Source: a virus. Taken from it: 23,230 bases of DNA. Below, piece by piece: positions 1 through 14,659 of the stretch. The stretch is taken from IMG/VR virus record IMGVR_UViG_3300025626_000138, positions 1-23,230 of that record. One strand, 5' to 3'. How positions within the stretch are numbered: position 1 is the stretch's first letter; each line of letters opens with the position of its first letter. The position numbers and the translations under genes were made by a program. A model generated the notes under the pieces. The model saw only the letters and a list, made by a program, of their open reading frames with translations. It was not told the DNA's origin and did no database searches.

Positions 1-3000
1 CAAAAGCTATAGGATTACCATCTTTATCTTTTTTATTAGGATCAAATTCTCTAGCTATTTCTTGAAGCTCTGTTTTTGCACTTTCTAAATATGTTTTTCT
101 ATCTAAGCCTGCTTTTTCTCTAACGTTTACCGGTATGCCTTTATAAAACTTAGTAAAAGCTCTATTAGCAACCTTGTTAACCATTGTTTCAACTTTTTCT
201 TTTTCTACACCTTCAACCTCTTTAGTTAAGTCTTTAGAAGCCATTACTTCAGCTTTTTTAGCTTTAGCATCAATATTTGCTGGGTAGTATTCAACATCTG
301 ATAAGTCTATCTTACCTAAAGCGGCAAATTGACTAGCGCTAACATCAGATACGTAGCCTTTTTGAAATTCTCTACCTAAGTCGCCTAATGTTCTGACTAA
401 ATCTGCAGCTGTTCTTGGTGGAGCAAAATCACCTAATCCATATTGTTTTTGAATTAATCTAATTTCAGATTTAATTCCATTAACAAAAGTACCGGATGTA
501 TATTTATTTTGATAATAAACCTTAGGATCTGTTAAAAATTCAGTTAAAAAAGCTATGTATTCTTCTCCTTGTACGTTTTTATCTTTATAATTTTCTTGTA
601 TTGCTCTTCTTAATTCAGTATCTTTAAATGTTCCAAAATCAACACCTTTAAACATTTCACGCATTTTGTTTGTGAAATTTATTTTAGCTTGTGGATTTTT
701 CTTGAAATAAGCATTGAAAATAACATGTGATAATTCGTGTAAAGGTTTTCCAGGAGTATACTTGCTTAAGTCTACTAACACCTTGTTTTGCTCTGGTAAA
801 AATTCAGCAGTATTACCTTCTTGCATTTGCATTTTAGCATCTTCAGCTTTTAAAAATAAAACCTCTGGATTAACAAAAGTTGATTCACCGTTTTTACCTT
901 TAGGAGCAGATTCACTTAAAGATTTAAAAATAGGTTTAGTTATTTGATTATTAAAGTTCTTTTCAAAACTAGGATTTAATTCAAATTCTCCAGTTTCTTT
1001 ATTTACTATTTTTTCACCTGTGTTAGGGTCAGTAGCAAAGGGGTTTAATGATTGATGTTGAGTTCTTATGCTTAGCATTTGATCAACAGTACCCATTGTC
1101 TCACTTACTTTTGATAATTTATTTAAAATTTCTAAAGCTTTTTTACCTTCTGCTGTTTTTTGTTTTGATAACTTACTTAGTTGCTCTTGTATTTTAAAGT
1201 TTTTATCTGAAGAAGTTGTAGGTATTCTTTTACCATCAGGAGTTAATCTATTATCTGGAATTATATTAATTCCGTTTTCCACTAATAATCTCTGACCTTG
1301 TTTAGAAAGATCTCTAGATCTACTATTAAGCTTATTCATTTCTCTACCTAAACCGTGGTTAGATAAAAAATCTCTACCTTTAAAATGCTGAGCTCCAGTA
1401 AGCTTAAACATCATAACGTTGGATAAAAATCTTTTAGTAGCTTCGTCAGTATCTCCGTACAGCTCGTCCATACCTGCATTAAAGTCGCTATTATCCAACA
1501 TATCATCAACAATGTTATGTATGATTTCACTACCTTCTATTGATAATGCTCCTGCTGGACCAGCTTTAGCGTATTTATTCATTAAAGTGTTTAAACCAAC
1601 CTTATGCTTATTAAAAAACCTTATAGGTTCAAAAACTTTACCTAAACCAAAAAATAAAGCACCAGTACCTAAGCCGAAGTCAGCTGTAGTTGATTGCATT
1701 TTAACCTCTTCTTTAAAAGCTCCAGCTAAAAATTTTCCTAATTTAGGCAATCTAGCTATTGCAGCACCAGTTCCCATACCACCAGTAGCTAATTCAAAAG
1801 CTGCAAACTCAAGAAGCGTAGGAACAAAACCACCGGTAGCTGTAGCAGTCATTTCTGACAAGCCCATTTCAAAGTTTTCTTCTTGTGCTTTTGTAAGTTT
1901 TATAGGTTCTGCTTTACCAGATTTAACGCTTTCAGAATTATTAACTATAGATACTGTTTGTTTTATTTGATCTAATAAGTTTCTAGGACTTTGACCTAAT
2001 GTTTTTTCAATCTCCTCTTGATTATAACCACCCCACTGCATTAAAGCAGCCTCTGGTAAAGCTTGGAATAAAGCAGTTTGCCCAAAACCAAAAATATCAG
2101 ACGCAACACCATTTAAAGGTATGCCATCTCTATATTTATCTTTACTGTAAGCGTCTGTGGGTTTTTCAATTAAAGCAGGGTTTTCTCCTAACTCAACTAA
2201 TCTGTATAAGCCTCTAATCTCAGCTTCAGTTTCTAGCTTTTCCTCTTCCCATATTCTATAATTTAAAATATCTTCACCTTTTTTTCTAGCTAAAACATTA
2301 TCTAATCCACCCTTATATCCACCAGCTTCTTCAGTCCTAACCCCTAAGTTGTATAGATCATTATAAGTTAAATCAATTTCTTCTATGTCTTTTAAAGTCT
2401 CTGTGTCAACTAGTCTAACTCCTCCAATAGCAAATTGATCAGTAACTGTAGATATGTTAAAACCTTTTGCGTTTAAATAATTTTTAACTTTAACTATTTC
2501 TGAAGCTTCTTCAATTAATAAATCTTTTAAATTAACTTTAATTTTATCTTTTCTACCTCTAGCGTCTAAAAACTCTGTTTCTAATATTCTATTATCTAAT
2601 AAGTTTTTACTTAAATCTCTAGCTGAAAGTTTTTCAACATCAGTTCCTTGACCTGCGAAAGCTTCTAGGATAGATCCAGTATTATAAGCGTTTTTCTCTA
2701 TTTGCTTAAGTTCTTCTTTTTTCTTTTTAGTAACGTTTAAAGTGTTAACCCAGTTGCCAGATTCATCCCAAGCTCCACCACCTAAATCTTTTTGTTTTAA
2801 AATAAGTTCTTCTTTTTCTTTTTTAAAATTTATTATTCTTTGATTATCATCTGCACTTCTATCTTTTTTTAATTCTAATAATTCTACTTGTTCATTAACT
2901 TTTGATATCTTACTATTTAATTCCTTTAGATTTAACTGCTTGTCTGTTAAATTGTTTTTTAACTCTTTTGTTTTAAGATTTGTATATTCTTGGCTTGCTT

Positions 3001-4018
3001 CGGCTCTACCTAAGTATTTAACAGCGTCTGAGTATATTCTTTCGTCAGCTATAGACCCAGATCTATTATCTATAAAACCCTGCATTTTACCACTATCATA
3101 TATAGCTAAAAAACTATCTTTAGTTATATTTAAACCTGTCTGCTCCTTTACACTATCGTAAACATAATCTCTAAGAATATCTTTTTCACTACTATTTAAT
3201 TTATTAAAACTAGCTGACAAAGATTCGTTTTCTGTTCTTATACCTGGAAAAACTTTTTTAAGGTTTGTAGCAGCATCTATAGCAATTCCTTCAACACTAT
3301 TAACTATATTTAACATTTCGCTAGCCTCAGGATTTCGAGTTTTTTCACCATAGGTAACACCTAGTTCTTCTGGCAAAAATGGAGCTGATCTACCCTCTTG
3401 TTCTACTATTTCTATTTCACTATATAGGTTGTTTGTTGAAGTATTACCATAATCATCGTAATCAACGGTTAAACCTGTTTTATCATACACTTCTTGCTTT
3501 ACAGGATCTAGTTTAGGTTTTTTACCAACAAAATCTTTAAATTCATTAAAATCACTAAATCCAGCATAATTAGTATTTAAATCAAAACTTTCTTCTTCTC
3601 CTGTGATTTTATTTTTAACAGTAATACCATTAAAATCAAAAGTTGATTCATCAAATTCAAAATCAGGATATAATCTAGCTAGTTTTTCACTATTGTTTTT
3701 AATAAAATCTTCTTCTGTTGACTTCCAGTCTTCTTCGGTTATTTCTTCAGTTTTTGGTTTAACAGGTTCTTTTTCTTCAACTTCAGTTTCTTGTATAGTA
3801 GTTTCTTCAACAACAGGTTCTTTTATTTCATCTGTTCCTATAGTTATATCTTTAAAGCTGTTTAAATCTCCGCTATAACCGTCTTTTTCAAATAAGTTAA
3901 AAGAATAATTTAAAGCCTCATCATTTGTAGATATTAAACTTTTGTAATCTTCTATAGATCCGCTATAACCATCTTTTGAAAACAAATCAAAACTATATTG
4001 TAAAGCTTCTGGATTCAT
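1..4018 (-). CDS. Giant putative ejected virion protein with zincin-like metallopeptidase site (3' end cut off)
   Basis: This is an open frame of at least 1339 codons with no stop before the left edge, so the C-terminus is missing. The ATG at 4018 lies 2 bp after the stop of the upstream gene. Residues 2-31 and 32-61 form two tandem repeats (16 of 30 positions identical, core LF.KDGYSG). An acidic linker follows, then a predicted coiled coil at about 340-407. Gly/Ala-rich hydrophobic stretches at about 640-660, 730-755 and 777-793 could insert into membrane. HELSH at 1094-1098 fits the HExxH zinc-binding motif, and GEEYIAFLTEF supplies Glu1152, Glu1153 and Glu1160 as candidate third ligands, so a gluzincin-like peptidase is inferred. 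As the last gene after the tail proteins it resembles giant internal or ejected proteins of podoviruses. Some crAss-like phages carry a virion RNA polymerase in such proteins, but no polymerase motif is visible in the part present. Substrate unknown. Confidence 0.8.
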   Translation of the reverse strand, partial: MNPEALQYSFDLFSKDGYSGSIEDYKSLISTNDEALNYSFNLFEKDGYSGDLNSFKDITIGTDEIKEPVVEETTIQETEVEEKEPVKPKTEEITEEDWKSTEEDFIKNNSEKLARLYPDFEFDESTFDFNGITVKNKITGEEESFDLNTNYAGFSDFNEFKDFVGKKPKLDPVKQEVYDKTGLTVDYDDYGNTSTNNLYSEIEIVEQEGRSAPFLPEELGVTYGEKTRNPEASEMLNIVNSVEGIAIDAATNLKKVFPGIRTENESLSASFNKLNSSEKDILRDYVYDSVKEQTGLNITKDSFLAIYDSGKMQGFIDNRSGSIADERIYSDAVKYLGRAEASQEYTNLKTKELKNNLTDKQLNLKELNSKISKVNEQVELLELKKDRSADDNQRIINFKKEKEELILKQKDLGGGAWDESGNWVNTLNVTKKKKEELKQIEKNAYNTGSILEAFAGQGTDVEKLSARDLSKNLLDNRILETEFLDARGRKDKIKVNLKDLLIEEASEIVKVKNYLNAKGFNISTVTDQFAIGGVRLVDTETLKDIEEIDLTYNDLYNLGVRTEEAGGYKGGLDNVLARKKGEDILNYRIWEEEKLETEAEIRGLYRLVELGENPALIEKPTDAYSKDKYRDGIPLNGVASDIFGFGQTALFQALPEAALMQWGGYNQEEIEKTLGQSPRNLLDQIKQTVSIVNNSESVKSGKAEPIKLTKAQEENFEMGLSEMTATATGGFVPTLLEFAAFELATGGMGTGAAIARLPKLGKFLAGAFKEEVKMQSTTADFGLGTGALFFGLGKVFEPIRFFNKHKVGLNTLMNKYAKAGPAGALSIEGSEIIHNIVDDMLDNSDFNAGMDELYGDTDEATKRFLSNVMMFKLTGAQHFKGRDFLSNHGLGREMNKLNSRSRDLSKQGQRLLVENGINIIPDNRLTPDGKRIPTTSSDKNFKIQEQLSKLSKQKTAEGKKALEILNKLSKVSETMGTVDQMLSIRTQHQSLNPFATDPNTGEKIVNKETGEFELNPSFEKNFNNQITKPIFKSLSESAPKGKNGESTFVNPEVLFLKAEDAKMQMQEGNTAEFLPEQNKVLVDLSKYTPGKPLHELSHVIFNAYFKKNPQAKINFTNKMREMFKGVDFGTFKDTELRRAIQENYKDKNVQGEEYIAFLTEFLTDPKVYYQNKYTSGTFVNGIKSEIRLIQKQYGLGDFAPPRTAADLVRTLGDLGREFQKGYVSDVSASQFAALGKIDLSDVEYYPANIDAKAKKAEVMASKDLTKEVEGVEKEKVETMVNKVANRAFTKFYKGIPVNVREKAGLDRKTYLESAKTELQEIAREFDPNKKDKDGNPIAF
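3836..4015 (-). repeat. Two tandem 90-bp (30-residue) coding repeats at the start of the giant protein
   Basis: Residues 2-31 (3926-4015) and 32-61 (3836-3925) align without gaps. Sixteen of 30 residues match, including EAL, YSF, LF and KDGYSG. The DNA copies are diverged, so this is an old duplication kept at protein level. I recall similar EAL...LF..DGY.G units at the start of other giant marine phage proteins. A role in binding other virion proteins is only a guess. Confidence 0.8.
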
Positions 4019-4020
4019 AT

Positions 4021-5496
4021 TTATTTTTTAGGATTAAATTTAGCTGCACCACTGCTAGGCCCTTGGTATGATTGTAATGTTGTTATCATAAAATCATTTA
4101 TTTTATCAACATCTATAAAGTTATTTCTGTCACCTATTCCAATGTATCTATCTAGTATGTCTAAAGATAATGGTTGATAAGGTGGTTGATTTTTTGAACC
4201 ACTTGGGGTAACTTTAATATACAAGTCGTTTTCATTATAACCTGGTAATGATCTATCAATTTCATCATTAAGAGCACTATTGCTAGCTTTAACAACAACG
4301 CCAGGATTAGCATCTATTAATATTGATTTAATTTTTTCAACTGTAGCTTCTTTATCTATATTACCATCTTTGTCAAATTCATTAACTTGATCTAATTCAT
4401 CATAAAAGTTAAACTTTTTTGTTTCTTCACTTGAAGAACCTTTTTTATCTTTTACAGTTTTACTAGTTTTAGTTTTAGTTTTTTGTTCGGCTAATTGAGT
4501 TCTTATATCTCTAACTTTCTCTCCTTTTCCTTTGCTATATTGATCCATTGTGTAGTTAGCAATAGCTTCCATTAATTCATCTTCTTGATCTCCATTCTCT
4601 GGATCATAAGTAACATCTATTCCTTTATCATAATAACCAGAACCAGATAAAAATTGCATAGTATCACCGTTTATACCGTTTCTTATTATCTTATCATTTA
4701 AAATACCATTTCTAATATTATCATAAGCTTTTTCAGAGTCTAACGATGTTGTAGTTATAAGCTCACCATTAGCTCCTCTTGATTCTGTAACTTTATTTAT
4801 ATTAGGAAAATTTTTAGCTAATTGATCATAAGAAGCTTTAAACGTAGGGCTAGGGTCTTGTACTTCATTCCATAACCCAGGTAATCCTTGCTCTCTTCCA
4901 GCATAGTAATTTGTAGGGTTTATTTTAAATTCTTTACCAGTGCTAGGATCTTTATAGCTTAAGTTAAAACCTAGACCATCCCACTCTGTTTTAATTTCTT
5001 TACCATTATTAACACCTAAGGCATTTAAAAAAGGTATTGCTTCTGGATTTGAATTAGTATTAGAAACTGTTTTAGTACTTGTTCCATTTACTACTCTTTT
5101 GTTATAATCTTCAGCTTCTGCTAGAAGTTTCATAAAATTACCAGTAGCACCTTCAATACCATTAAGTAAGTTAGATCTCATTTTAGTTACCTCAGTTTGA
5201 TCTCTACCTATTGAATTGTATTCTAAAAGATCTAAAGCATCGATTTGATCTATAATAGTTTGTTTAAAGCTATCAGCTAGTTCAGAGTTATCACTGCTTT
5301 GAATTTTATTAGCTTCCTGCATTAATTCAGCTGTCTGCTTAGCTAATGCATTTTTGCTAGTTTCAATCATGGCCATTTGATTGTCCATAGATGTTCTAGC
5401 AGTTTTTAAAGTCTTAGAAAGACCTGAAGCATAATCGGCTTGTTCAGCCATAGCAACTTGACCTTGTGTTATTCCTGGTTGTGCGTATGTTCCCAT
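4021..5496 (-). CDS. Putative internal/ejected virion protein (491 aa)
   Basis: I do not recognise a defined family. The N-terminal third (about residues 15-140) is rich in Ala, Gln, Lys, Glu and Met in helix-forming order (NQMAMIETSKNALAKQ, LMQEANKIQSS), consistent with a long helical or coiled-coil segment. The middle is mixed and polar. A Lys/Thr/Ser-rich low-complexity linker lies at about 338-360, followed by a compact acidic domain ending in a basic tail. No signal peptide, membrane segment or catalytic motif is visible. It sits between a 326-aa Ala/Gln-rich protein and the giant protein, the place where T7-like phages keep their internal core proteins and crAss-like phages their cargo proteins. 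An internal virion protein is therefore inferred from position and composition. The start at 5496 is 15 bp after the preceding stop and has an AT-rich leader. Confidence 0.72.
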   Translation of the reverse strand: MGTYAQPGITQGQVAMAEQADYASGLSKTLKTARTSMDNQMAMIETSKNALAKQTAELMQEANKIQSSDNSELADSFKQTIIDQIDALDLLEYNSIGRDQTEVTKMRSNLLNGIEGATGNFMKLLAEAEDYNKRVVNGTSTKTVSNTNSNPEAIPFLNALGVNNGKEIKTEWDGLGFNLSYKDPSTGKEFKINPTNYYAGREQGLPGLWNEVQDPSPTFKASYDQLAKNFPNINKVTESRGANGELITTTSLDSEKAYDNIRNGILNDKIIRNGINGDTMQFLSGSGYYDKGIDVTYDPENGDQEDELMEAIANYTMDQYSKGKGEKVRDIRTQLAEQKTKTKTSKTVKDKKGSSSEETKKFNFYDELDQVNEFDKDGNIDKEATVEKIKSILIDANPGVVVKASNSALNDEIDRSLPGYNENDLYIKVTPSGSKNQPPYQPLSLDILDRYIGIGDRNNFIDVDKINDFMITTLQSYQGPSSGAAKFNPKK

Positions 5497-5511: not shown

Positions 5512-6492
5512 TTAATAAATTTTTCTTTTCATAATCTTTCCTACTCCTCCAGGTCCATCTTGCAAGTCTTCATAAGAAACTTTTTCTCCATCTATAGTCA
5601 CATAACCCATTGAAGCCACTTGACCTGACGCCGCTTGGTTAACATCTGAAGCTGACACCGCTTGGTCAACCTCTAAAACACCTTTACCAGGAAAAGCAGA
5701 CATAGCTTGATTACCAGTAATAGCTGGCGCACTAACTTGATCAACAATTTCGTCTGCTAGCTTTAAATCATCACCAAAACTGTTATCAATTAAACTGTTT
5801 TGCATTCTTTCTTGAAAATCTCTTTCTGATTCGTTTTGTGCTGCGTTATTTCTTTCATCAGCGTTGTTCATAAAAGTTTTTACTCTTTTTTCAGGAACTA
5901 TACCAGCATTTCTAACAGCTGCAGCATCACCTAATGCACTTAGACCTGTTTGTATAGACATGTCTCTTCTGTATTGAGCCATATCAGCTTGAGCTTGTAA
6001 TCTATTTAATTCATTAATGTCTCTATTTTCTTGCATCTGCATTCTAACAGTTTCACCTTTACCTTTAGCAATGTCAACTTGTAATTGGCCTTGAGCTTGT
6101 AGTTTTTGGTTATTAACTTCTTGCTGTTCAATACTAGCAGCAACACCTTGTTTAGATTTTAATGCAGCATTTGCTATAGCAGTTGCTCCACCTGCAGCAG
6201 CCCCAGTTTCTCTTAACGTGTCTAAAGTATTAGCTAAAGCTTGATCTGTTTGTTCCATTTTTATTTCAGCAGCTTGAGTAGCTACAGCTAAGTTTTCATA
6301 AGGATTAGATAAATTAGCAAAAGGATTTTCTATATCTTGCCTTCTGTAATTATCAATATCAGTTCTTACTTTTCCTAATTGTCTTTGAGCTGAAATAGCT
6401 TGAAACCCAGCTAAAGCAGCTGGCGCAGCGGCCCAAGCTGTTTCCCAACCTGTTCCAGGCTTTAATTCAAATCCTAATTTTTTTAATCCCAT
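5512..6492 (-). CDS. Putative internal/ejected virion protein, helical Ala/Gln-rich (326 aa)
   Basis: The N-terminus has an amphipathic to hydrophobic Ala-rich stretch (WETAWAAAPAALAGFQAISA, residues 16-35) that could touch membrane. Residues 64-180 are almost entirely helix-forming, with NLAVATQAAEIKMEQTDQ, a Gly/Ala hinge (ETGAAAGGATAIA, 95-107) and a Gln-rich coiled-coil run (SKQGVAASIEQQEVNNQKLQ). The C-terminal part is polar and acidic. I recall this NLxVxTQAAE...SKQGVAASIE pattern in structural modules of flavobacterial and crAss-like phages, where such proteins sit just after the tail nozzle genes. By size, composition and order it is comparable to T7 gp14-type internal proteins ejected first to form a channel, but no homology is claimed. 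The gene starts 6 bp after the 625-aa gene and belongs to the same transcript. Confidence 0.75.
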   Translation of the reverse strand: MGLKKLGFELKPGTGWETAWAAAPAALAGFQAISAQRQLGKVRTDIDNYRRQDIENPFANLSNPYENLAVATQAAEIKMEQTDQALANTLDTLRETGAAAGGATAIANAALKSKQGVAASIEQQEVNNQKLQAQGQLQVDIAKGKGETVRMQMQENRDINELNRLQAQADMAQYRRDMSIQTGLSALGDAAAVRNAGIVPEKRVKTFMNNADERNNAAQNESERDFQERMQNSLIDNSFGDDLKLADEIVDQVSAPAITGNQAMSAFPGKGVLEVDQAVSASDVNQAASGQVASMGYVTIDGEKVSYEDLQDGPGGVGKIMKRKIY

Positions 6493-6498
6493 AATTTT

Positions 6499-8376
6499 TT
6501 ATCTTGATGATACTACAAATTCCGATGATACAGCAAACATTTCTTTAGTTCCACCAGCGTTAGTTGTTAAATCTGTTGACATTTTTACTGTAGCAAAATA
6601 TCCTTTTACGCCCGTCATAGAGTCTCCAAATACAACTTCTCCATCTGTAGCTGTAGAACTGTTTACTAAGTTAGCGTAATATTTATTTTCTTTTTCTACA
6701 AATCCAGCTCTATAAGGTATACCATTTTCAGTATATAAACCTTCGTTATAACTTTTGACGTTAACGGTTTGATCTAAAACTTCATTAACTCCAGGTCTTA
6801 TATTAGCAGCGTCTGTTACAAAACTATCAACTTGCCAACCATTACTACCTTCGTAATTAATAGTTTTAAAGTTTTTATTAACTGAAGGACTAGGGTTAAA
6901 TATAAAAGTTATAGAAGATTGGTTAGAAACTCCATAAAATTCATTAGCATTAGTTAAACTATCATAATGAATATATAAAGAACCTTCTTTAGTTGTAAAA
7001 TAGTTATTTTTTAAACTAAATATAAGATCAGGTCTATATGTATAAAAAGTATTCCATCCTTGTACTCTTTCACTGAATGTGAGCGTATTATAGTAATCAC
7101 TTGTTTCATCTAGTGTTTTACTACCTGAATGCTGCTGTATAGATATAGTATAATTATCTTTGTAATTATCAAAACCACCTTCTATTTTATCTTTTTCATA
7201 ATAAACAAATCTTATTTGCGGATCAGCAGCTACTCCTGGAGAGTATACTTGTAGAGGGCCATTATCTAAAAACACAACATTTGAAGAAGTGCCTGAAATA
7301 TCTACTGTACCAATACCTGTAACAAAAGAATTTACAGACTCCCATATACCACCACCACTTACGTTTGTATTTATTTGAACTTGTGAACCTGATATTAACT
7401 CCTGTAGATCATTTATGCCTTTAGCTATAACTCTAACCCAAGGGCCTAAAGGTGCAACAACCTGAGGTCCTGGTCCTGGTAATGGAACTTGAGGACCTTG
7501 AACTATAACCCCGCTTGTTTGATCATATTGTAAATCAAAAGCTACTGTAGTTATAACTTTTCTATCAGAAAGCTTAGCTAATTCATCTCTAAAAAAATCT
7601 CTCATGCCATACTGTGATATTTCAGTTATACCGTCTCTAGACAGCCTTAAAACAGCATTTCGATCTTTATCTGCAAAATATCTTCTAAATCCAAAATGAG
7701 CAAAACTTTCTGGATTTCTACTTATACCATATTCACCCGAGTAAGGAGTAACTTGACCTATTACCACGTTTGAAACAGTATTTACCGGTGTTCCTTCAGC
7801 TGAGTATATAGCATCTTTATCTATTAGTGCTTGGCTAACTTTATTTTCTTGAAATATTGTTAAGTTATTATCCATAGCATAGATAAGTTGTATTGAACCA
7901 TTATGAGGGTCAACAGATTTAGTTATGTCTTCACCTACAGAAAAAACATTAGTTCTATTTATATTTGTTTTAGAATTAAAAATCCCTGAATACACTAAAG
8001 CATTTGATCTATATCTAACATTGCTAGAGTCTTCCATTAGATAAGCTCTAACACCTAAATCTACTTGAGTGTTATTATATCCACCTCTAATTCTAGACTC
8101 TTCTATAACCCAGTTAGACCCATCATTTGGCAAATAACTATTGTTGTTAGTTGTATAAACATTTGAATAAGGAATTGTTGGAGTAACACCAGAAGGTATA
8201 GAAGAGGTAGGCTGAGGCCAATTTGGATAATTATCATTAGTTTTATTTAAAAAAGGTATACCTGGAAATAATTTAACGTAACTAGGTCTTAAAGTAGAAT
8301 TAGTTGTTAAAAAAGGAGTTGTATTCTGTTTTAACCAAAACGTATTGTAATATTTTACTTCTAAATCAAATGCCAT
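6499..8376 (-). CDS. Tail nozzle/tubular-like structural protein (625 aa)
   Basis: This is a beta-rich protein with many Tyr, Asn, Ser and Thr residues and few long helices. Residues 89-104 (WVIEESRIRGGYNNTQ), the segment FSVGEDITKS at 145-154 and LTIFQENKVSQALIDKDAI at 172-190 recall the beta-propeller repeats of P22 gp10/T7 gp12-like tail proteins and the crAss-like muzzle protein. There the unit is typically a read-out of the kind 'N.L.IF.E..V.....D'. A Pro/Gly-rich linker (VPLPGPGPQVVAPLGP, about 297-312) separates the propeller-like half from a second beta-rich half that may face outward. The gene is 11 bp downstream of the 1354-aa gene. Together they probably build the short tail. The split between two genes is notable because related proteins, as I remember them, can be one chain. 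No enzymatic motif is seen. Confidence 0.78.
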   Translation of the reverse strand: MAFDLEVKYYNTFWLKQNTTPFLTTNSTLRPSYVKLFPGIPFLNKTNDNYPNWPQPTSSIPSGVTPTIPYSNVYTTNNNSYLPNDGSNWVIEESRIRGGYNNTQVDLGVRAYLMEDSSNVRYRSNALVYSGIFNSKTNINRTNVFSVGEDITKSVDPHNGSIQLIYAMDNNLTIFQENKVSQALIDKDAIYSAEGTPVNTVSNVVIGQVTPYSGEYGISRNPESFAHFGFRRYFADKDRNAVLRLSRDGITEISQYGMRDFFRDELAKLSDRKVITTVAFDLQYDQTSGVIVQGPQVPLPGPGPQVVAPLGPWVRVIAKGINDLQELISGSQVQINTNVSGGGIWESVNSFVTGIGTVDISGTSSNVVFLDNGPLQVYSPGVAADPQIRFVYYEKDKIEGGFDNYKDNYTISIQQHSGSKTLDETSDYYNTLTFSERVQGWNTFYTYRPDLIFSLKNNYFTTKEGSLYIHYDSLTNANEFYGVSNQSSITFIFNPSPSVNKNFKTINYEGSNGWQVDSFVTDAANIRPGVNEVLDQTVNVKSYNEGLYTENGIPYRAGFVEKENKYYANLVNSSTATDGEVVFGDSMTGVKGYFATVKMSTDLTTNAGGTKEMFAVSSEFVVSSR

Positions 8377-8387
8377 TTTAAATTTTT

Positions 8388-11300
8388 TTAAATTTGAACA
8401 ATACTTACGTAATTGTTTTTAGTTATTATAAAATTAAAAGAATAATTATTTGAAGGCAAGCTTGCAGTGCCATTAGAAGCATCTCTTACTAAAATTTCAA
8501 TATTATATATTTGACAAGCTCTAAATCCTTGTTCTCTACGTCCAAAATTTGTTGCAAGATTTGTATTTTCTCTCCAGTAAAGTTGAGGCCAACTAAATTG
8601 CCCAGAAGTGTATGTTTCTATACTAAATTCTGATTTAAAAGGTTGATCTAAACCGCCTATAGAACCCGTGCTATAAAAATTAGCAAAATTTAAGCTACTG
8701 TTAGAATTTGGATTTACTTCTTCTTTAATGTATCCCAAAAATTTAATAACATTTTTTATTTCATAAGTAAGACCTTGAATTCTTTGACTAGATAAATTGT
8801 TAGTTGTGTCTGAAGCGCTGTTAAATGTTGTAATTGGATTAAATCCATTTGTAATAAAAGAAAATCTTGCAACGGGAAAACCTGCTCCAACAACTCCATT
8901 ATTTTTAAATCTTTCTAATTCGTCTTTTATGTAATCTTGAGAGTAAAAAACAGCATTAATTTTTTGATCATAATTAGTTCCAGCGTTATTTAAAACAGTA
9001 CTTGGTATTAAACTTGATGAACTTGAGGCTAAAAGTTCAGTTAAAGTTAAGCTTTTAACTTCAGCTCTTTGAAAGTCTTGATAACCACCTGTATTTAAAG
9101 ACCAAGGAGGACTCATTCTATATAAAATAGGTGTTACGTTGTTTAATTGAACAGCTCTAATATTTACATTTATAGATGGATAAGTATCAGTTGATATTTC
9201 TAAAGTAACATCGTATCTTCTTGAAATGTCTGATCCATTTAAAAAAGGATACCTTCTTGCTGCTGTAAATCTAAATGTTGGCCCAGTATTTGGCGAAACA
9301 GGAGCAGTTACTTGCTCTATGCCTATAGGCCAATCAGATGGTGAAACTACTGTTGGCCTGCTAGTAGCAGATCCAGTTCCAGAGTTTGTTATTTCTTTTA
9401 TTACAACAGTTGTTGATAAAGCAGTTGTTCCACCTTGTGAAGCGCCTGATGAATTTACTACTTCAAAAGTATTACTTATTGATTGACCAACAGCTGTACT
9501 TTCAAACCAGTTGCTAATATTAACGCTAGACAAACCAAAAGGAGCATCTGTAGTTCCTGATCCATCACTTAGTATAGAATTGTTTAGTTCACTAATAATA
9601 CCAGTAGTAGAAGTTTCATAATATATGTCTATGTTAGATTTAAAAGGCTCTGTTTCAAATACCATTAATTTATCTGCAAATTTGTAACCAGTTACTGCAG
9701 TTTGATCTTCTTGATTAGTAGAAGTAAAACCCATTCGTTTTTGAGTATTTATAGTGGCTATTAAAGGATTTTTATTGTTTCTTAAAAAGAAAGGATCTAC
9801 TTCGCCTTCAGCTCCTGGGTATATAAAAGTTCCTAATAAATATTGAGAATCTGAAGAAGCAGCAGGGTCTGGATTCATATTTGCGTAATGCAAATCTATA
9901 TTTTTTTTAGTAGTCCAATCACCAAGTTCGCTAAAAGGTCTAACTGTAGTTACTTCTTGTTTTAATGGAGACAAATTTTGTTGACCTATAGTTATATTAA
10001 AACTGGTAGGTGTTCCAACATTTTGTATTTGAGTTTGTTTAACTCTATTATATAAAACAACACTAGATCCATATATATTATCTGTAGGACCTACTTCTTT
10101 TAAATCTCTTGGTATTTTATTTATATTATCATTAAATAAAGCTATACTTGCAACAGAAGAAGTATTTGAATAAGTTAATTTTACGTTATTTTTAGTATAA
10201 ACAATATTACCGCTTAAAGCTCCTGGCACATAAATATTATAATAATCTTGTTCTTGTTGTTGAACTACTATTTTATAAGTATACCAACCTAAGGGATTTT
10301 CACCTTCTTTCCATAATCCATTATAAGGTAAGGAAGATGGAAGTTCTGATGGTATTTGACTGTTAAAAATAACTTTTAAAGATTCACCTGGCCAGCCAAG
10401 TGGATTTATACCACCATTAGTGTATGAATTAAAAATTGTAGAATTTTTTGTAATTAAATCTAATTGATTTATTATAACATTTGAAGCTCTACCATATCTA
10501 TCCTGAAGAACAATACCAACTTGATAAGATCTATTTTGTTTTAAAGTGTTATTTAAAAACTCTTTATTAGTAGTGCTACTAGTTAATGACCCTTTAGTTA
10601 CAGTTTCTAACTTATAATCTAAAGTTAGTGGAGTGGCGTTGTTTTGAAGAAAGTTTCCATAAACAACTCTATTTCCAACAACTTCTTGAGTTTGAGCTCT
10701 CATAGGAACTATATCACTAACTCTTGTAACTTCTTCATCAGTTAAAACTTTTATAGGTTTTTCAGAACTATAGTTATATATAAACGTAGAGCTTAAAGAA
10801 GAAACAACGTACTCAGCTGCTGTACCTCCGCCTTGTACAGGTATTTGTATAACATCCCCTACTTTATAACCTTCACCAGTTTTATTAACAGTAGCAGAGG
10901 TTGACCTACCAGCTCCATTTATAACAAGGTCTACTGTTAGTCCTGATCCACTACCTCCAGTGGTTGCTTTATTTGTTATAGTGCCAGGCGCCGGAGCAAA
11001 CCCATCACCTGCAGTTTGTAATGTTAAAGTTGAAGGTAAACCTGTAAAATCACTAACTTTTACATCTGCTATTACTTTTACATTTAAATCATCTGAAGCT
11101 TTATAAAGTAGTTGTATTTCATCTACTTTTAGCTTGTCAGATATTTCGTTACTTTTATAAGGTAAATTAATAACTAATCCAGCTGTAGTTATTTGGTTTT
11201 CCATAAATTCAACTATACTAGAAGCTTTAGTTTTTTCATCATCACCTTCTAAAAAGTAACCATATTGTTTAGGTACAAAAGCATGTTGAGTAAAAGGAGC

Positions 11301-12452
11301 GGTTAAAGAATACTCGTTATCTTCGTATTTAAATCTATAACTAAATCTTACAAATTTATCTTCTAATAGCTTTTTATCTCCAGCAAAGTTAGAATTATAA
11401 TCAGGATTTTCTAATGAAAACAAAAACACGACATTATTATCCCAACCTAAGTCTCCAGGTATGTCATTTATTGGTACAGCAGTACCAGTTTTATTAGATT
11501 TTAAAAAAACTTTAGCTGGAACTGTAGAGGTATCTATGTTTTGAACGTAGGCAAAGCTGCCATTAGGATCATTAGAGCTTATGACTTTTATAGGATTAGA
11601 ATATAGCGTCCCAGCAGTACCACTGCCTAAATAGGTAGCTATAGTGCTATATGACTGATTTGGTGGTGTAGAAGCCGTTTCATCAAATATTAAAAAATCT
11701 TGAGGCCCTACATTTGTTGTGTAAGCGCCAGGTGCACCCCAAAAAGAAGGTAGCCATTCATCAGATTCGTTTAATAATGTAGACTCTAAAGTTCCTGTTG
11801 TATTTTTTAAGAAAGATATAGGCTCAAATGGAGCGTATTTAGCAACAGAAACATGATCTTCATTAGTATAATAAGTTAAAGGATTTGTTATTGCTTTTTC
11901 TACATTTATTTTTCTAGGCTGATTTCTGTTATCAGTAAAAAACAATAAATCTTCAATCATGTTCACTCCAGATATTGGATGTGTTTTAGAGAAGTTTAAG
12001 AAAGTTCCAGATACTAATATATCAAAACTAATATTTGATTGCTCTATAGCAGAAGAATCAGCTACATTAGGTAATTGACAATAAGCTATATAGTTGTTAG
12101 CTCCAGTTCTTACAAAGTTTGTGTAATCACCTGAGCCAACAGCAGTATCACTTTGCCTAGAAAGATTACCTAAACTATCTGCAGAAGCATCTGTGTAGTT
12201 AGTTAAAAAGAAAAATATTCTATTATTAACTACATCTGCATATTGACCTATTATTTCAATGTTAAAGTCTGTTAAACCAAAACTAGTTAATAGCTTATTA
12301 CCTCTAATATTTTCTAAAGAACCAACACTAGCATCTTCAGAAGCACTAACACTAGCGTTTTGAGCATCTCTATATTCGCCTTGTGGTAGTATTCTAGCCT
12401 CTGTATCTTTATTCATACGAGACTTTAGAAAAGTATTTTTAATTTCTGGCAT
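8388..12452 (-). CDS. Large tail nozzle/tubular-like structural protein (1354 aa)
   Basis: The N-terminus carries a signature I associate with large structural proteins of marine phages and crAss-like tails: MNKDTEARILPQGEYRDAQN at residues 13-32, then SVGSLENIRGNK. The rest is a long beta-rich, Asn/Ser/Thr/Tyr-rich chain with few charged helices, as in multi-domain tail proteins. Residues about 475-555 hold a Gly-rich beta module containing GEGYKVGDVI (526-535). The same pattern occurs in the 345-aa connector-like protein (GSGYSVGDTI), so an accessory domain seems shared. The protein is much longer than P22 gp10 or T7 gp12, and inserted domains may explain this. It follows the 387-aa gene by 2 bp and precedes the 625-aa gene by 11 bp. 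A tail nozzle or muzzle role is inferred from signature, composition and order. Long plus-strand ORFs inside it are shadows. Confidence 0.8.
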   Translation of the reverse strand: MPEIKNTFLKSRMNKDTEARILPQGEYRDAQNASVSASEDASVGSLENIRGNKLLTSFGLTDFNIEIIGQYADVVNNRIFFFLTNYTDASADSLGNLSRQSDTAVGSGDYTNFVRTGANNYIAYCQLPNVADSSAIEQSNISFDILVSGTFLNFSKTHPISGVNMIEDLLFFTDNRNQPRKINVEKAITNPLTYYTNEDHVSVAKYAPFEPISFLKNTTGTLESTLLNESDEWLPSFWGAPGAYTTNVGPQDFLIFDETASTPPNQSYSTIATYLGSGTAGTLYSNPIKVISSNDPNGSFAYVQNIDTSTVPAKVFLKSNKTGTAVPINDIPGDLGWDNNVVFLFSLENPDYNSNFAGDKKLLEDKFVRFSYRFKYEDNEYSLTAPFTQHAFVPKQYGYFLEGDDEKTKASSIVEFMENQITTAGLVINLPYKSNEISDKLKVDEIQLLYKASDDLNVKVIADVKVSDFTGLPSTLTLQTAGDGFAPAPGTITNKATTGGSGSGLTVDLVINGAGRSTSATVNKTGEGYKVGDVIQIPVQGGGTAAEYVVSSLSSTFIYNYSSEKPIKVLTDEEVTRVSDIVPMRAQTQEVVGNRVVYGNFLQNNATPLTLDYKLETVTKGSLTSSTTNKEFLNNTLKQNRSYQVGIVLQDRYGRASNVIINQLDLITKNSTIFNSYTNGGINPLGWPGESLKVIFNSQIPSELPSSLPYNGLWKEGENPLGWYTYKIVVQQQEQDYYNIYVPGALSGNIVYTKNNVKLTYSNTSSVASIALFNDNINKIPRDLKEVGPTDNIYGSSVVLYNRVKQTQIQNVGTPTSFNITIGQQNLSPLKQEVTTVRPFSELGDWTTKKNIDLHYANMNPDPAASSDSQYLLGTFIYPGAEGEVDPFFLRNNKNPLIATINTQKRMGFTSTNQEDQTAVTGYKFADKLMVFETEPFKSNIDIYYETSTTGIISELNNSILSDGSGTTDAPFGLSSVNISNWFESTAVGQSISNTFEVVNSSGASQGGTTALSTTVVIKEITNSGTGSATSRPTVVSPSDWPIGIEQVTAPVSPNTGPTFRFTAARRYPFLNGSDISRRYDVTLEISTDTYPSINVNIRAVQLNNVTPILYRMSPPWSLNTGGYQDFQRAEVKSLTLTELLASSSSSLIPSTVLNNAGTNYDQKINAVFYSQDYIKDELERFKNNGVVGAGFPVARFSFITNGFNPITTFNSASDTTNNLSSQRIQGLTYEIKNVIKFLGYIKEEVNPNSNSSLNFANFYSTGSIGGLDQPFKSEFSIETYTSGQFSWPQLYWRENTNLATNFGRREQGFRACQIYNIEILVRDASNGTASLPSNNYSFNFIITKNNYVSIVQI

Positions 12453-13621: not shown

Positions 13622-14659
13622 TTAAGATTTTTCATTAATTTTGTCTTGTTGTAATTCACTTTGAGCTACTTGAATTATTTGAGGATCTCTTATAACTATT
13701 CCAGCGTATAATAATATGTTTAATATAAGTTCTGTTTGTTCAGATGTTTGTAATCCAAAATCTATATAACCTTGTTGTGATCCTGAAAACAAATTAGCTT
13801 CTGTTAAAGTAACAACAGCAGCGCCACCACCACCGCCTGGAAAATCTGTAGCAGTAAAAGTAATTGTATCACCTACTGAATAGCCAGAACCTTGAGATGT
13901 TACATTTATGCTGCTTATAGCGCCTCCAGTAACTGTTACACTAAATACGGCAGTTTGGTTATTTCCAGTGCTAGTATATGTAGCAGCTGGATAAGTAGCA
14001 ATAGTTATGCCAGAAGTATCGTTAGAAGAAGTAGTTAAACTACCTATATTAATAGCTGTAGCTACATAAGGGTAGTTAGTAAAAACATATTGCCCTAAAC
14101 CACCTATACTATATCCCCATCTAATATCTGTAGGTTTTTTAACATATTGCATTTTAATATGATCTACATTAATTATATTATCAGGATAAACTATGCATTT
14201 GTTGTCTTCGTATAAATATACGGGAAAATTCTTTGTTGGAGTTGTTAATGGAGCTTTTCTTATATTGTAAAACTCAGATCTACCTAGTCTTTGCATTTCA
14301 GGGTAGATATTAGAACTTGGTTCATAGGTAACTGAACCTAGCTTATACAGCTCAGAAGGAACTGTAAATATATTGGATGTTGGATTTGTAACGCCTATAG
14401 CTTTTTCAGCTACAGTTTGATCGTTTTCAGTTTTAAATTCTGCAATTTTTTCATCAGTTAAAGCAACTCTATCGGCATAGTCCATATCTGTTTGAGGAGT
14501 ACGAACCTGTTGGTTTAAATCCTCAAAGCATTTCTCAAAGAGCTCTCTTTGAACTTGAGTACCTATTTTATTAAATTCATCAGGTGTCATATAACCCCTT
14601 TGTTCTTTGTTTAAAATAAGTAATACAGTTTTATATACAGTATCTACGCTTATTGCCAT
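13622..14659 (-). CDS. Connector/adaptor-like structural protein with Gly-rich beta insertion (345 aa)
   Basis: The helical N-terminus has NKEQRGYMTPDEFNKIG at residues 18-33 and a run through about 50 (LFEKCFEDLNQQ). I remember this as a conserved start of a connector-region protein in crAss-like and marine flavobacterial phages. The middle is mixed alpha/beta (LYKLGSVTYE, FPVYLYEDNKCIVYPD). Residues about 198-288 look like an inserted beta module ending in GSGYSVGDTI (257-266) and a five-glycine run, and they resemble a segment of the 1354-aa protein. The final helical part (QTELILNILLYAGIVIRDPQ) resumes the core. The gene begins after a clear transcription terminator at 14672-14700 and is followed 3 bp later by the 387-aa gene. 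An adaptor that docks on the portal is inferred from order and family memory. No enzyme motif is seen. Confidence 0.76.
   Translation of the reverse strand: MAISVDTVYKTVLLILNKEQRGYMTPDEFNKIGTQVQRELFEKCFEDLNQQVRTPQTDMDYADRVALTDEKIAEFKTENDQTVAEKAIGVTNPTSNIFTVPSELYKLGSVTYEPSSNIYPEMQRLGRSEFYNIRKAPLTTPTKNFPVYLYEDNKCIVYPDNIINVDHIKMQYVKKPTDIRWGYSIGGLGQYVFTNYPYVATAINIGSLTTSSNDTSGITIATYPAATYTSTGNNQTAVFSVTVTGGAISSINVTSQGSGYSVGDTITFTATDFPGGGGGAAVVTLTEANLFSGSQQGYIDFGLQTSEQTELILNILLYAGIVIRDPQIIQVAQSELQQDKINEKS

What the first reader, a model, noticed from the sequence alone, without database searches (positions are those of the whole stretch)
1..4018. Giant ejected-type phage protein with an embedded gluzincin-like peptidase site
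The frame encodes HELSH at residues 1094-1098 (725-739) and, 54-66 residues later, GEEYIAFLTEF with three glutamates. That arrangement fits zincin peptidases in which the third zinc ligand is a Glu on a following helix. The site lies in a protein of more than 1339 residues that also has N-terminal repeats, a coiled coil and hydrophobic Gly/Ala segments, and it is placed last in the tail module. A peptidase delivered into the cell could cut a host factor or process the protein itself to release domains. Large virion proteins of some crAss-like phages combine a zinc peptidase with an RNA polymerase, so the missing C-terminus matters.
Basis: partly seen in the sequence, partly recalled or inferred. 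Interest (0 to 1): 0.62.

Follow-up and report, generated by a model that had tools for sequence, protein, structure and literature searches.

The report
Swappable zinc-peptidase in giant phage protein
A flavobacterial-type phage makes a roughly 3,000-residue protein, very likely carried in the particle and injected into the host, that contains an intact zinc-peptidase domain; related phages keep only the peptidase's four catalytic residues constant and exchange the rest of the domain like a cartridge, which points to a working enzyme that cuts the protein itself or something in the host.

Summary
HELSH is residues 1094-1098 (window 739-725, minus strand) and GEEYIAFLTEF starts at residue 1151. 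The ORF runs off the window; three close relatives give the full length, 2955-3096 aa. Of 68 full-length relatives, 66 carry exactly one HExxH (0.31 expected by composition), although the domain is otherwise only about 10-30% identical. The only invariant columns among 70 aligned domains are H, E, H and one downstream Glu, which is Glu1153 here. The predicted fold is a zincin core with HExxH and Glu1153 on two helices; the nearest solved structures are gluzincins, none individually significant. Zincin-core dN/dS is 0.01-0.11. So it is a gluzincin-type domain, almost certainly catalytic. The RNA-polymerase idea is not supported: no DxDxD motif recurs, and the C-terminal 650 aa is an all-helical domain resembling domains of phage polyvalent proteins. 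A homologue of the region before the zincin is a virion protein by MS/MS (phi18:3 gp123). New here: the zincin is exchanged as a cassette between phages 94-99% identical on both sides, and a second slot exchanges a HAD phosphatase for other domains. It belongs with the polyvalent proteins of Iyer et al. 2017. Self-processing is the most likely role, host cleavage the main rival; neither is shown.

The parts
2..4018 (-). giant ORF, residues 1-1339 of about 3000; runs off the left window edge
   Evidence: full-length relatives L001-L003 of 2955-3096 aa
3839..4018 (-). two N-terminal repeats (residues 1-60, period 30)
   Evidence: 18 of 30 identical at offset 30
2699..3001 (-). K/E-rich, probable coiled-coil stretch (about residues 340-440)
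   Evidence: composition only; no coiled-coil predictor run
1058..2398 (-). conserved core before the zincin (residues 541-987), with Gly/Ala hydrophobic stretches; shared with the giant virion-block proteins of isolates, including ones that lack the zincin
   Evidence: profile hits of 46-80 bits to elemo gp18, phi38:1 gp101, Panino and phi18:3 gp123; dN/dS 0.11-0.18
479..1009 (-). zincin (gluzincin-type) domain, about residues 1004-1180
   Evidence: AF2 model, block pLDDT about 70-92 over most of this span, Foldseek, alignment of 70 relatives, dN/dS 0.012-0.106
725..739 (-). HELSH, residues 1094-1098: zinc ligands H1094 and H1098, general base E1095
536..568 (-). GEEYIAFLTEF, residues 1151-1161, on the second ligand helix
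560..562 (-). Glu1153, predicted third zinc ligand
   Evidence: Glu in 70 of 70 relatives, also when the downstream part is aligned without HExxH; shuffles never give an invariant column
4021..5496 (-). 491 aa protein, probable second ejected cargo protein
   Evidence: synteny with crAss001 gp46 and with phi18:3 gp121, detected by MS/MS; no family hit
5512..6492 (-). 326 aa protein, probable first ejected cargo protein
   Evidence: synteny with crAss001 gp45; no clear family hit
6499..8376 (-). muzzle-like tail protein
   Evidence: crAss_MUZ_C PF25729, E 2.2e-10, above the curated cut-off

Best explanation
The ORF is the 5' part of a roughly 3,000-residue phage polyvalent protein that is packed in the virion and ejected into a Bacteroidota host ahead of, or with, the DNA. 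Its order is: N-terminal repeats, a conserved hydrophobic core that serves loading or passage, a catalytic gluzincin-type zincin (zinc on H1094, H1098 and E1153; general base E1095), a variable enzyme region (often a HAD phosphatase) and a constant all-helical C-terminal domain. The zincin most likely cuts the giant chain itself, releasing the enzyme modules after packaging or after entry, as proposed for polyvalent proteins. Shown by sequence: the intact, selected active site, the modular architecture and the cassette exchange. Inferred: zinc binding, ejection of this very protein, and self-cleavage.
For: HExxH in 66 of 68 full-length relatives against 0.31 expected, and an HExxxH variant in one more, a form known in polyvalent peptidases. 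H-E-H plus one Glu are the only invariant columns. AF2 core with HExxH and Glu on two helices; the nearest solved structures are gluzincins (IrrE/PprI, collagenases, M61, minigluzincins). dN/dS 0.012 against L001. The C-terminal fold matches viral proteins named as polyvalent or polyvalent-associated, within 53 hits at E<=1e-3. The core is homologous to phi18:3 gp123, found in virions by MS/MS. Gene order matches the crAss001 muzzle-cargo-cargo-giant order. For processing: the zincin is present whichever enzyme modules surround it, and it is absent from the shorter giant proteins of Panino, phi38:1 and phi18:3, which also lack this C-terminal domain. Iyer et al. 2017 argue the same role in general.
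Against: No cleavage product or site is known. N4 vRNAP carries an HExxH domain next to a large helical C-terminal domain and shows no degradation, so such a domain can be present without processing. The zincin is swapped between close relatives, which a host-directed enzyme would also explain. Foldseek gave no single hit at E<=1e-3, and no Pfam match of the window protein passes its cut-off. Membership of the virion is by homology and synteny only.
Confidence: 0.5

Rival explanations
1. The zincin is itself the effector: once injected it cuts a host protein, such as a defence or envelope factor, and its cassette is exchanged because hosts differ in the target.
For: Zincin divergence is largely uncoupled from the rest of the protein (r=0.28). 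Of 25 pairs with C-termini at least 90% identical, 11 have zincins under 50% identical. L049 and L050 are 94-99% identical on both sides of a replaced N-core plus zincin segment. Within one allele the zincin is under very strong purifying selection.
Against: Near-universal presence fits a housekeeping role better than a target-specific weapon. The N-terminal core is swapped together with the zincin, so the exchange may follow the core and not the peptidase. No target is known.
Confidence: 0.3
2. The domain is kept for structure, packaging or regulation of the giant chain and does little or no proteolysis, as may be the case in N4 vRNAP.
For: N4 vRNAP has an HExxH domain next to a large helical C-terminal domain, shows no degradation, and the C-terminal part regulates the polymerase; the peptidase region is reported to be needed for encapsidation.
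Against: A purely structural domain should not keep H, E, H and Glu as the only invariant residues at about 10-30% identity.
Confidence: 0.14
3. The giant protein is a crAss-type virion RNA polymerase with a fused zincin.
For: Same position after muzzle and cargo genes as the RNA polymerase genes of crAss001.
Against: No DxDxD motif recurs in the family. No Pfam or PHROG polymerase match in full-length relatives. The conserved C-terminus is all helical with no double-psi barrel. In phi14:2 the DFDID and HExxH motifs sit in separate proteins, and none of the phi14:2 proteins tested matches our profiles.
Confidence: 0.03
4. Chance HExxH in a long coiled protein.
For: None beyond the shortness of the motif.
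Against: 66 of 68 against 0.31 expected, invariant Glu, fold, dN/dS.
Confidence: 0.01

Closest known systems
Phage-type polyvalent proteins with a zincin-like MPTase (Iyer et al. 2017, PMC5512222)
   Same: Giant multidomain phage protein in the late structural block; HExxH helix plus Glu on the following helix; three-strand core with a preceding helix; HExxxH variant in one relative; variable enzyme modules; C-terminal fold matching proteins named as polyvalent or polyvalent-associated.
   Different: No curated zincin or LPD profile matches at a significant level here. The paper's main text does not mention crAss phages or Bacteroides. Exchange of the zincin between near-identical genomes is documented here, whereas the paper only raises recombinational variability as a possibility for another set of proteins.
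N4 virion RNA polymerase gp50 (Schitoviridae)
   Same: About 3,500 aa ejected protein with a presumed membrane-spanning N-terminus and an HExxH domain followed by a large mostly helical C-terminal domain.
   Different: No RNA polymerase module found here. No detectable similarity of the C-terminal domain to solved structures by sequence or fold.
Giant last-gene proteins of Cellulophaga phages phi18:3 gp123 and phi38:1 gp101 and of Flavobacterium phage elemo gp18
   Same: Same genomic position and a homologous core before the zincin (46-80 bits). elemo gp18 also has a homologous zincin (43.5 bits; HEIFH at residue 1543). phi18:3 gp123 is recorded as found by MS/MS.
   Different: phi18:3, phi38:1 and Panino proteins lack HExxH; none of these isolate proteins has the C-terminal domain of this family.
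Crassvirales cargo and RNA polymerase proteins (crAss001 gp45-gp50, phi14:2 gp076-gp078)
   Same: Gene order after the muzzle, giant size, virion location; phi14:2 gp076 has a single HEIMH.
   Different: Profiles of core, zincin and C-terminal domain do not match phi14:2 proteins. The isolates nearest by portal and capsid are filed outside Crassvirales where a genus or family is given (Elemovirus, Pervagoviridae, Pachyviridae).
M78 / IrrE-PprI and other gluzincin folds
   Same: Foldseek top hits (PprI E 0.054) and weak Pfam M78 matches in 11 of 70 relatives.
   Different: No match of the window protein passes a curated cut-off; different protein context.

Membership tests
Zincin-like metallopeptidase, gluzincin type | HExxH on a helix | tested here: met
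   HELSH 1094-1098 on predicted helix 107-121 of the model; conserved in 66 of 68 full-length relatives
Zincin-like metallopeptidase, gluzincin type | third ligand Glu on a following helix | tested here: met
   Glu1153 on predicted helix 163-177; Glu in 70 of 70. Ligand distances in the model could not be measured
Zincin-like metallopeptidase, gluzincin type | zincin core fold: N-terminal helix, three-stranded sheet, two ligand helices | tested here: met
   helix 32-53, strands 68-72, 87-90 and 95-99, then ligand helices
Zincin-like metallopeptidase, gluzincin type | significant structural or profile match to a known member | tested here: inconclusive
   best PDB hit E 0.054, prob 0.77 to PprI; top list dominated by gluzincins, none at E<=1e-3; Pfam hits weak
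Zincin-like metallopeptidase, gluzincin type | zinc binding and peptidase activity | not testable with these tools
   needs biochemistry
Phage polyvalent protein (Iyer et al. 2017) | several unrelated enzyme domains in one chain | tested here: met
   zincin plus HAD phosphatase related to phrog_415 in relatives; kinase/Zeta-toxin-like domain in two relatives. The window itself ends before the second slot
Phage polyvalent protein (Iyer et al. 2017) | encoded with virion structural genes | tested here: met
   last gene of the block after muzzle and cargo-like genes
Phage polyvalent protein (Iyer et al. 2017) | recognised LPD or polyvalent-associated domain | tested here: inconclusive
   C-terminal model matches viral proteins named as large polyvalent protein-associated or PolyVal; no Pfam LPD model among the sequence matches shown
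Phage polyvalent protein (Iyer et al. 2017) | delivered into the host | not testable with these tools
   a homologue of its core is in virions; delivery not shown
crAss-type virion RNA polymerase | DxDxD catalytic motif | tested here: not met
   no conserved DxDxD in the family; positive control DFDID found at 1361 of phi14:2 gp077
crAss-type virion RNA polymerase | two double-psi beta barrels | tested here: inconclusive
   C-terminal domain all helical; the middle region was not modelled

The most novel reading that the evidence does not exclude
Marine flavobacterial-type phages carry a polymorphic injected weapon: a roughly 3,000-residue protein with a constant C-terminal chassis, an obligatory but interchangeable zinc-peptidase cartridge and a second interchangeable slot (HAD phosphatase, nuclease-like or unknown domains), reshuffled between otherwise near-identical phages so that each lineage fields a different protease and effector against host defences.
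Probability: 0.3. Interest if true: 0.75.

Novelty: new variant of a known kind. Interest (0 to 1): 0.5.

Why it matters
Zincin domains are reported as the commonest domains of polyvalent proteins, yet whether they cut the carrier or the host is unresolved, and in N4 the role of the HExxH domain is still unclear. This family gives natural experiments: phage pairs 94-99% identical in flanking DNA that differ in the zincin segment, and others that differ only in the second slot. A homologous zincin occurs in cultured Flavobacterium phages (elemo), so the question can be tested directly. If the cassette matches host range or defence content, it would be an injected counterpart of polymorphic toxins.

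Tried and rejected
RNA polymerase fusion: rejected as above. Named Pfam or PHROG family for the giant protein: none; the CIF hit (E 0.094, below cut-off) and DUF3267 hit (E 0.28) are not evidence by themselves. Direct tblastn of the giant protein or its C-terminal part against annotated phages: no match; isolates were reached only through portal and capsid. Whole-protein and zincin-only scans of viral contigs returned only three close relatives; the C-terminal alignment gave 80 loci. Profile search of solved structures with the zincin alignment: only weak hits, including small zinc proteases and bacillolysin at E 0.36-0.72. Fold search of the C-terminal domain in the PDB: nothing meaningful. 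Host assignment from bacterial genomes: 20 loci, all in MAG contigs of mixed assignment (Bacteroidota, but also Aliivibrio and an archaeon), probably stray viral contigs in bins, so not used. Pfam on non-HAD second-slot sequences: no clear family. Papers: the Drobysheva et al. paper on the phi14:2 polymerase is not held.
Full report
What is in the window. The window is a 23,230-base virus record, a fragment. On the minus strand it carries terminase, portal, a major-capsid-like protein, further virion proteins, a muzzle-like protein (crAss_MUZ_C, E 2.2e-10), two proteins of 326 and 491 aa without clear family hits, and last the giant ORF 4018-2. Its nearest isolates by portal and capsid are Caudoviricetes sp. 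MW202828, Maribacter phage Panino, Flavobacterium elemo phages and Cellulophaga phages. The isolates are filed outside Crassvirales where a family or genus is given (Elemovirus, Pervagoviridae, Pachyviridae), but the gene order follows crAss001 (muzzle, cargo 1, cargo 2, giant proteins).

The observation. The missing C-terminus comes from relatives L001-L003, whose ORFs are 2955, 3088 and 3096 aa. The motif region is 75-97% identical in these, and HELSH and GEEYIAFLTEF are unchanged.

Conservation. The C-terminal part of the relatives found 80 loci in viral contigs. Among 68 full-length giants (2000-3700 aa), 66 have exactly one HExxH against 0.31 expected from shuffles; L021 has HEILGH, an HExxxH form described for polyvalent peptidases; L045 has none. 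The middle residues and flanks vary freely (HELSH, HEIWH, HEVGH, HEGKH, HEDVH). In an alignment of 70 zincin regions, mostly 9-20% identical to the window, the invariant columns are H1094, E1095, H1098 and E1153. The first three are invariant by the way the sequences were chosen; the Glu is not. It remains the only 70/70 column when the downstream 120 residues are aligned without HExxH, and shuffled sequences never give an invariant column. The spacing from HExxH to this Glu is 29-78 residues, median 55.

Fold. The AF2 model from that alignment has block pLDDT of 70-92 over its core and the order helix, strands, HExxH helix, and later a helix holding Glu1153, which is the description of the polyvalent MPTase core. 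Foldseek against the PDB has no hit at E<=1e-3; the best are PprI/IrrE (E 0.054), with related regulators, lethal factor, collagenases, an M61 peptidase and minigluzincins following. Pfam scans of the 70 members give weak matches most often to M78, then DUF6782 and SprT-like among metallopeptidases. Taken together these point one way, though none is significant alone. Metal geometry could not be measured.

Selection. Against L001, dN/dS is 0.012 in the zincin core, 0.11 in the preceding core, and 0.6-0.8 at the N-terminus and after residue 1256; against L003 it is 0.106 in the zincin core, where synonymous sites are near saturation. The active domain is thus maintained.

Virion location. The region before the zincin (residues 541-987) is homologous to the giant last-gene proteins of elemo (79.5 bits), phi38:1 (63.2), Panino (51.2) and phi18:3 (45.9) (the E-values there are for a tiny database, so bits are quoted). 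phi18:3 gp123 is recorded as detected by MS/MS. Zincin homology reaches elemo gp18 (43.5 bits); the phi38:1, phi18:3 and Panino proteins have no HExxH and are shorter. None of the isolate proteins has the C-terminal domain of this family.

Not a polymerase. No DxDxD motif recurs in the family. The constant C-terminal domain is predicted all helical at mean pLDDT 79. It has no PDB match but 53 viral-model matches at E<=1e-3, several named large polyvalent protein-associated or PolyVal ADP-ribosyltransferase. In phi14:2 the polymerase motif DFDID is in gp077 and an HExxH is in the neighbouring gp076. N4 vRNAP offers a parallel: an HExxH domain followed by a large helical domain, without degradation.

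Cassette exchange. Across 2142 pairs, zincin identity only weakly follows C-terminal identity (r 0.28). Of 25 pairs with C-termini at least 90% identical, 11 have zincins under 50% and 8 at least 90%; these fall into 10 clusters, so they are not independent. In L049/L050 the flanking DNA is 94-99% identical, while the DNA for giant residues about 77-647, holding the HExxH, gives no blastn match; L049/L084 keep that part and instead replace residues about 1104-1426. The second slot carries a HAD phosphatase motif in 49 of 68, related to phage polynucleotide kinase phosphatases. In L001, the closest relative of the window, this domain is eroded. Fast divergence alone does not explain a sharp change between near-identical flanks; recombination does.

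Reading. Established: an intact, selected gluzincin-type site in a giant phage late protein that is modular and recombining. Probable: packaging and ejection. Open: what it cuts. Self-processing is put first because the domain is present whichever modules surround it and is absent from shorter relatives without these modules; the exchange of the domain leaves a host target as a serious rival, and N4 shows that a non-processing role is possible.

Novelty. The general kind, a polyvalent protein with a zincin, is known. The new elements are this lineage, the constant C-terminal domain, the four-residue conservation and the documented exchange of zincin and second-slot cassettes. I found no paper on the latter in the held library, which is incomplete.

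Noticed in passing
L002 and L003 giant proteins, about residues 2190-2365: HAD phosphatase domain (DFDDTLA) related to phage polynucleotide kinase (phrog_415), directly before the constant C-terminal domain; in L001 the domain is eroded (VDFDALG).
   Followed up: partly
L049:8419-9708, L050, L070:8741-10030 (second slot): By eye, PD-(D/E)xK nuclease-like strings (DIEFILNGDKVFIEVKK; VDMIM...IPIELK) replace the HAD domain; Pfam found nothing.
   Followed up: partly
L017 middle region (E816 H817 of its row in alignment A6) and most relatives: A nearly invariant EH, often in an EHxxP context, with an N-Y-x-L-I stretch downstream in some members (L056, L084), looks HNH-like by eye; no family match.
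   Followed up: no
two relatives in alignment A6: AAA_33 / Zeta-toxin-like kinase domains (E 4e-17 and 5e-12) in the variable middle region.
   Followed up: no
L091 (MW202828 giant protein, UOF82488): 3859 aa with two HEFGH motifs (residues 1615 and 2500), both only weakly like the zincin profile; annotated only as reticulocyte binding/rhoptry protein.
   Followed up: partly
L098 (phi14:2 gp081) and L097 (gp076): gp081, a virion protein by MS/MS, has two HExxH motifs (HEFTH, HEFIH); gp076 has HEIMH beside the polymerase protein gp077 (DFDID at 1361).
   Followed up: partly
window 13622-14659 and 8388-12452: Glycine-rich inserts (GGSGSGLTVDLVINGAGRSTSATVNKTGEGYKVGDVI and similar); in the first gene the insert matches phage baseplate wedge families by PHROGs.
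   Followed up: no
L001:19175-21037 minus strand: After the giant gene the strand switches; the first large gene looks like a ribonucleotide reductase (620 aa), by eye only.
   Followed up: no
L099-L118: Relatives of the C-terminal domain sit in MAGs assigned to Bacteroidota but also Aliivibrio, Woesearchaeota and others; probably phage contigs misbinned into genomes.
   Followed up: no
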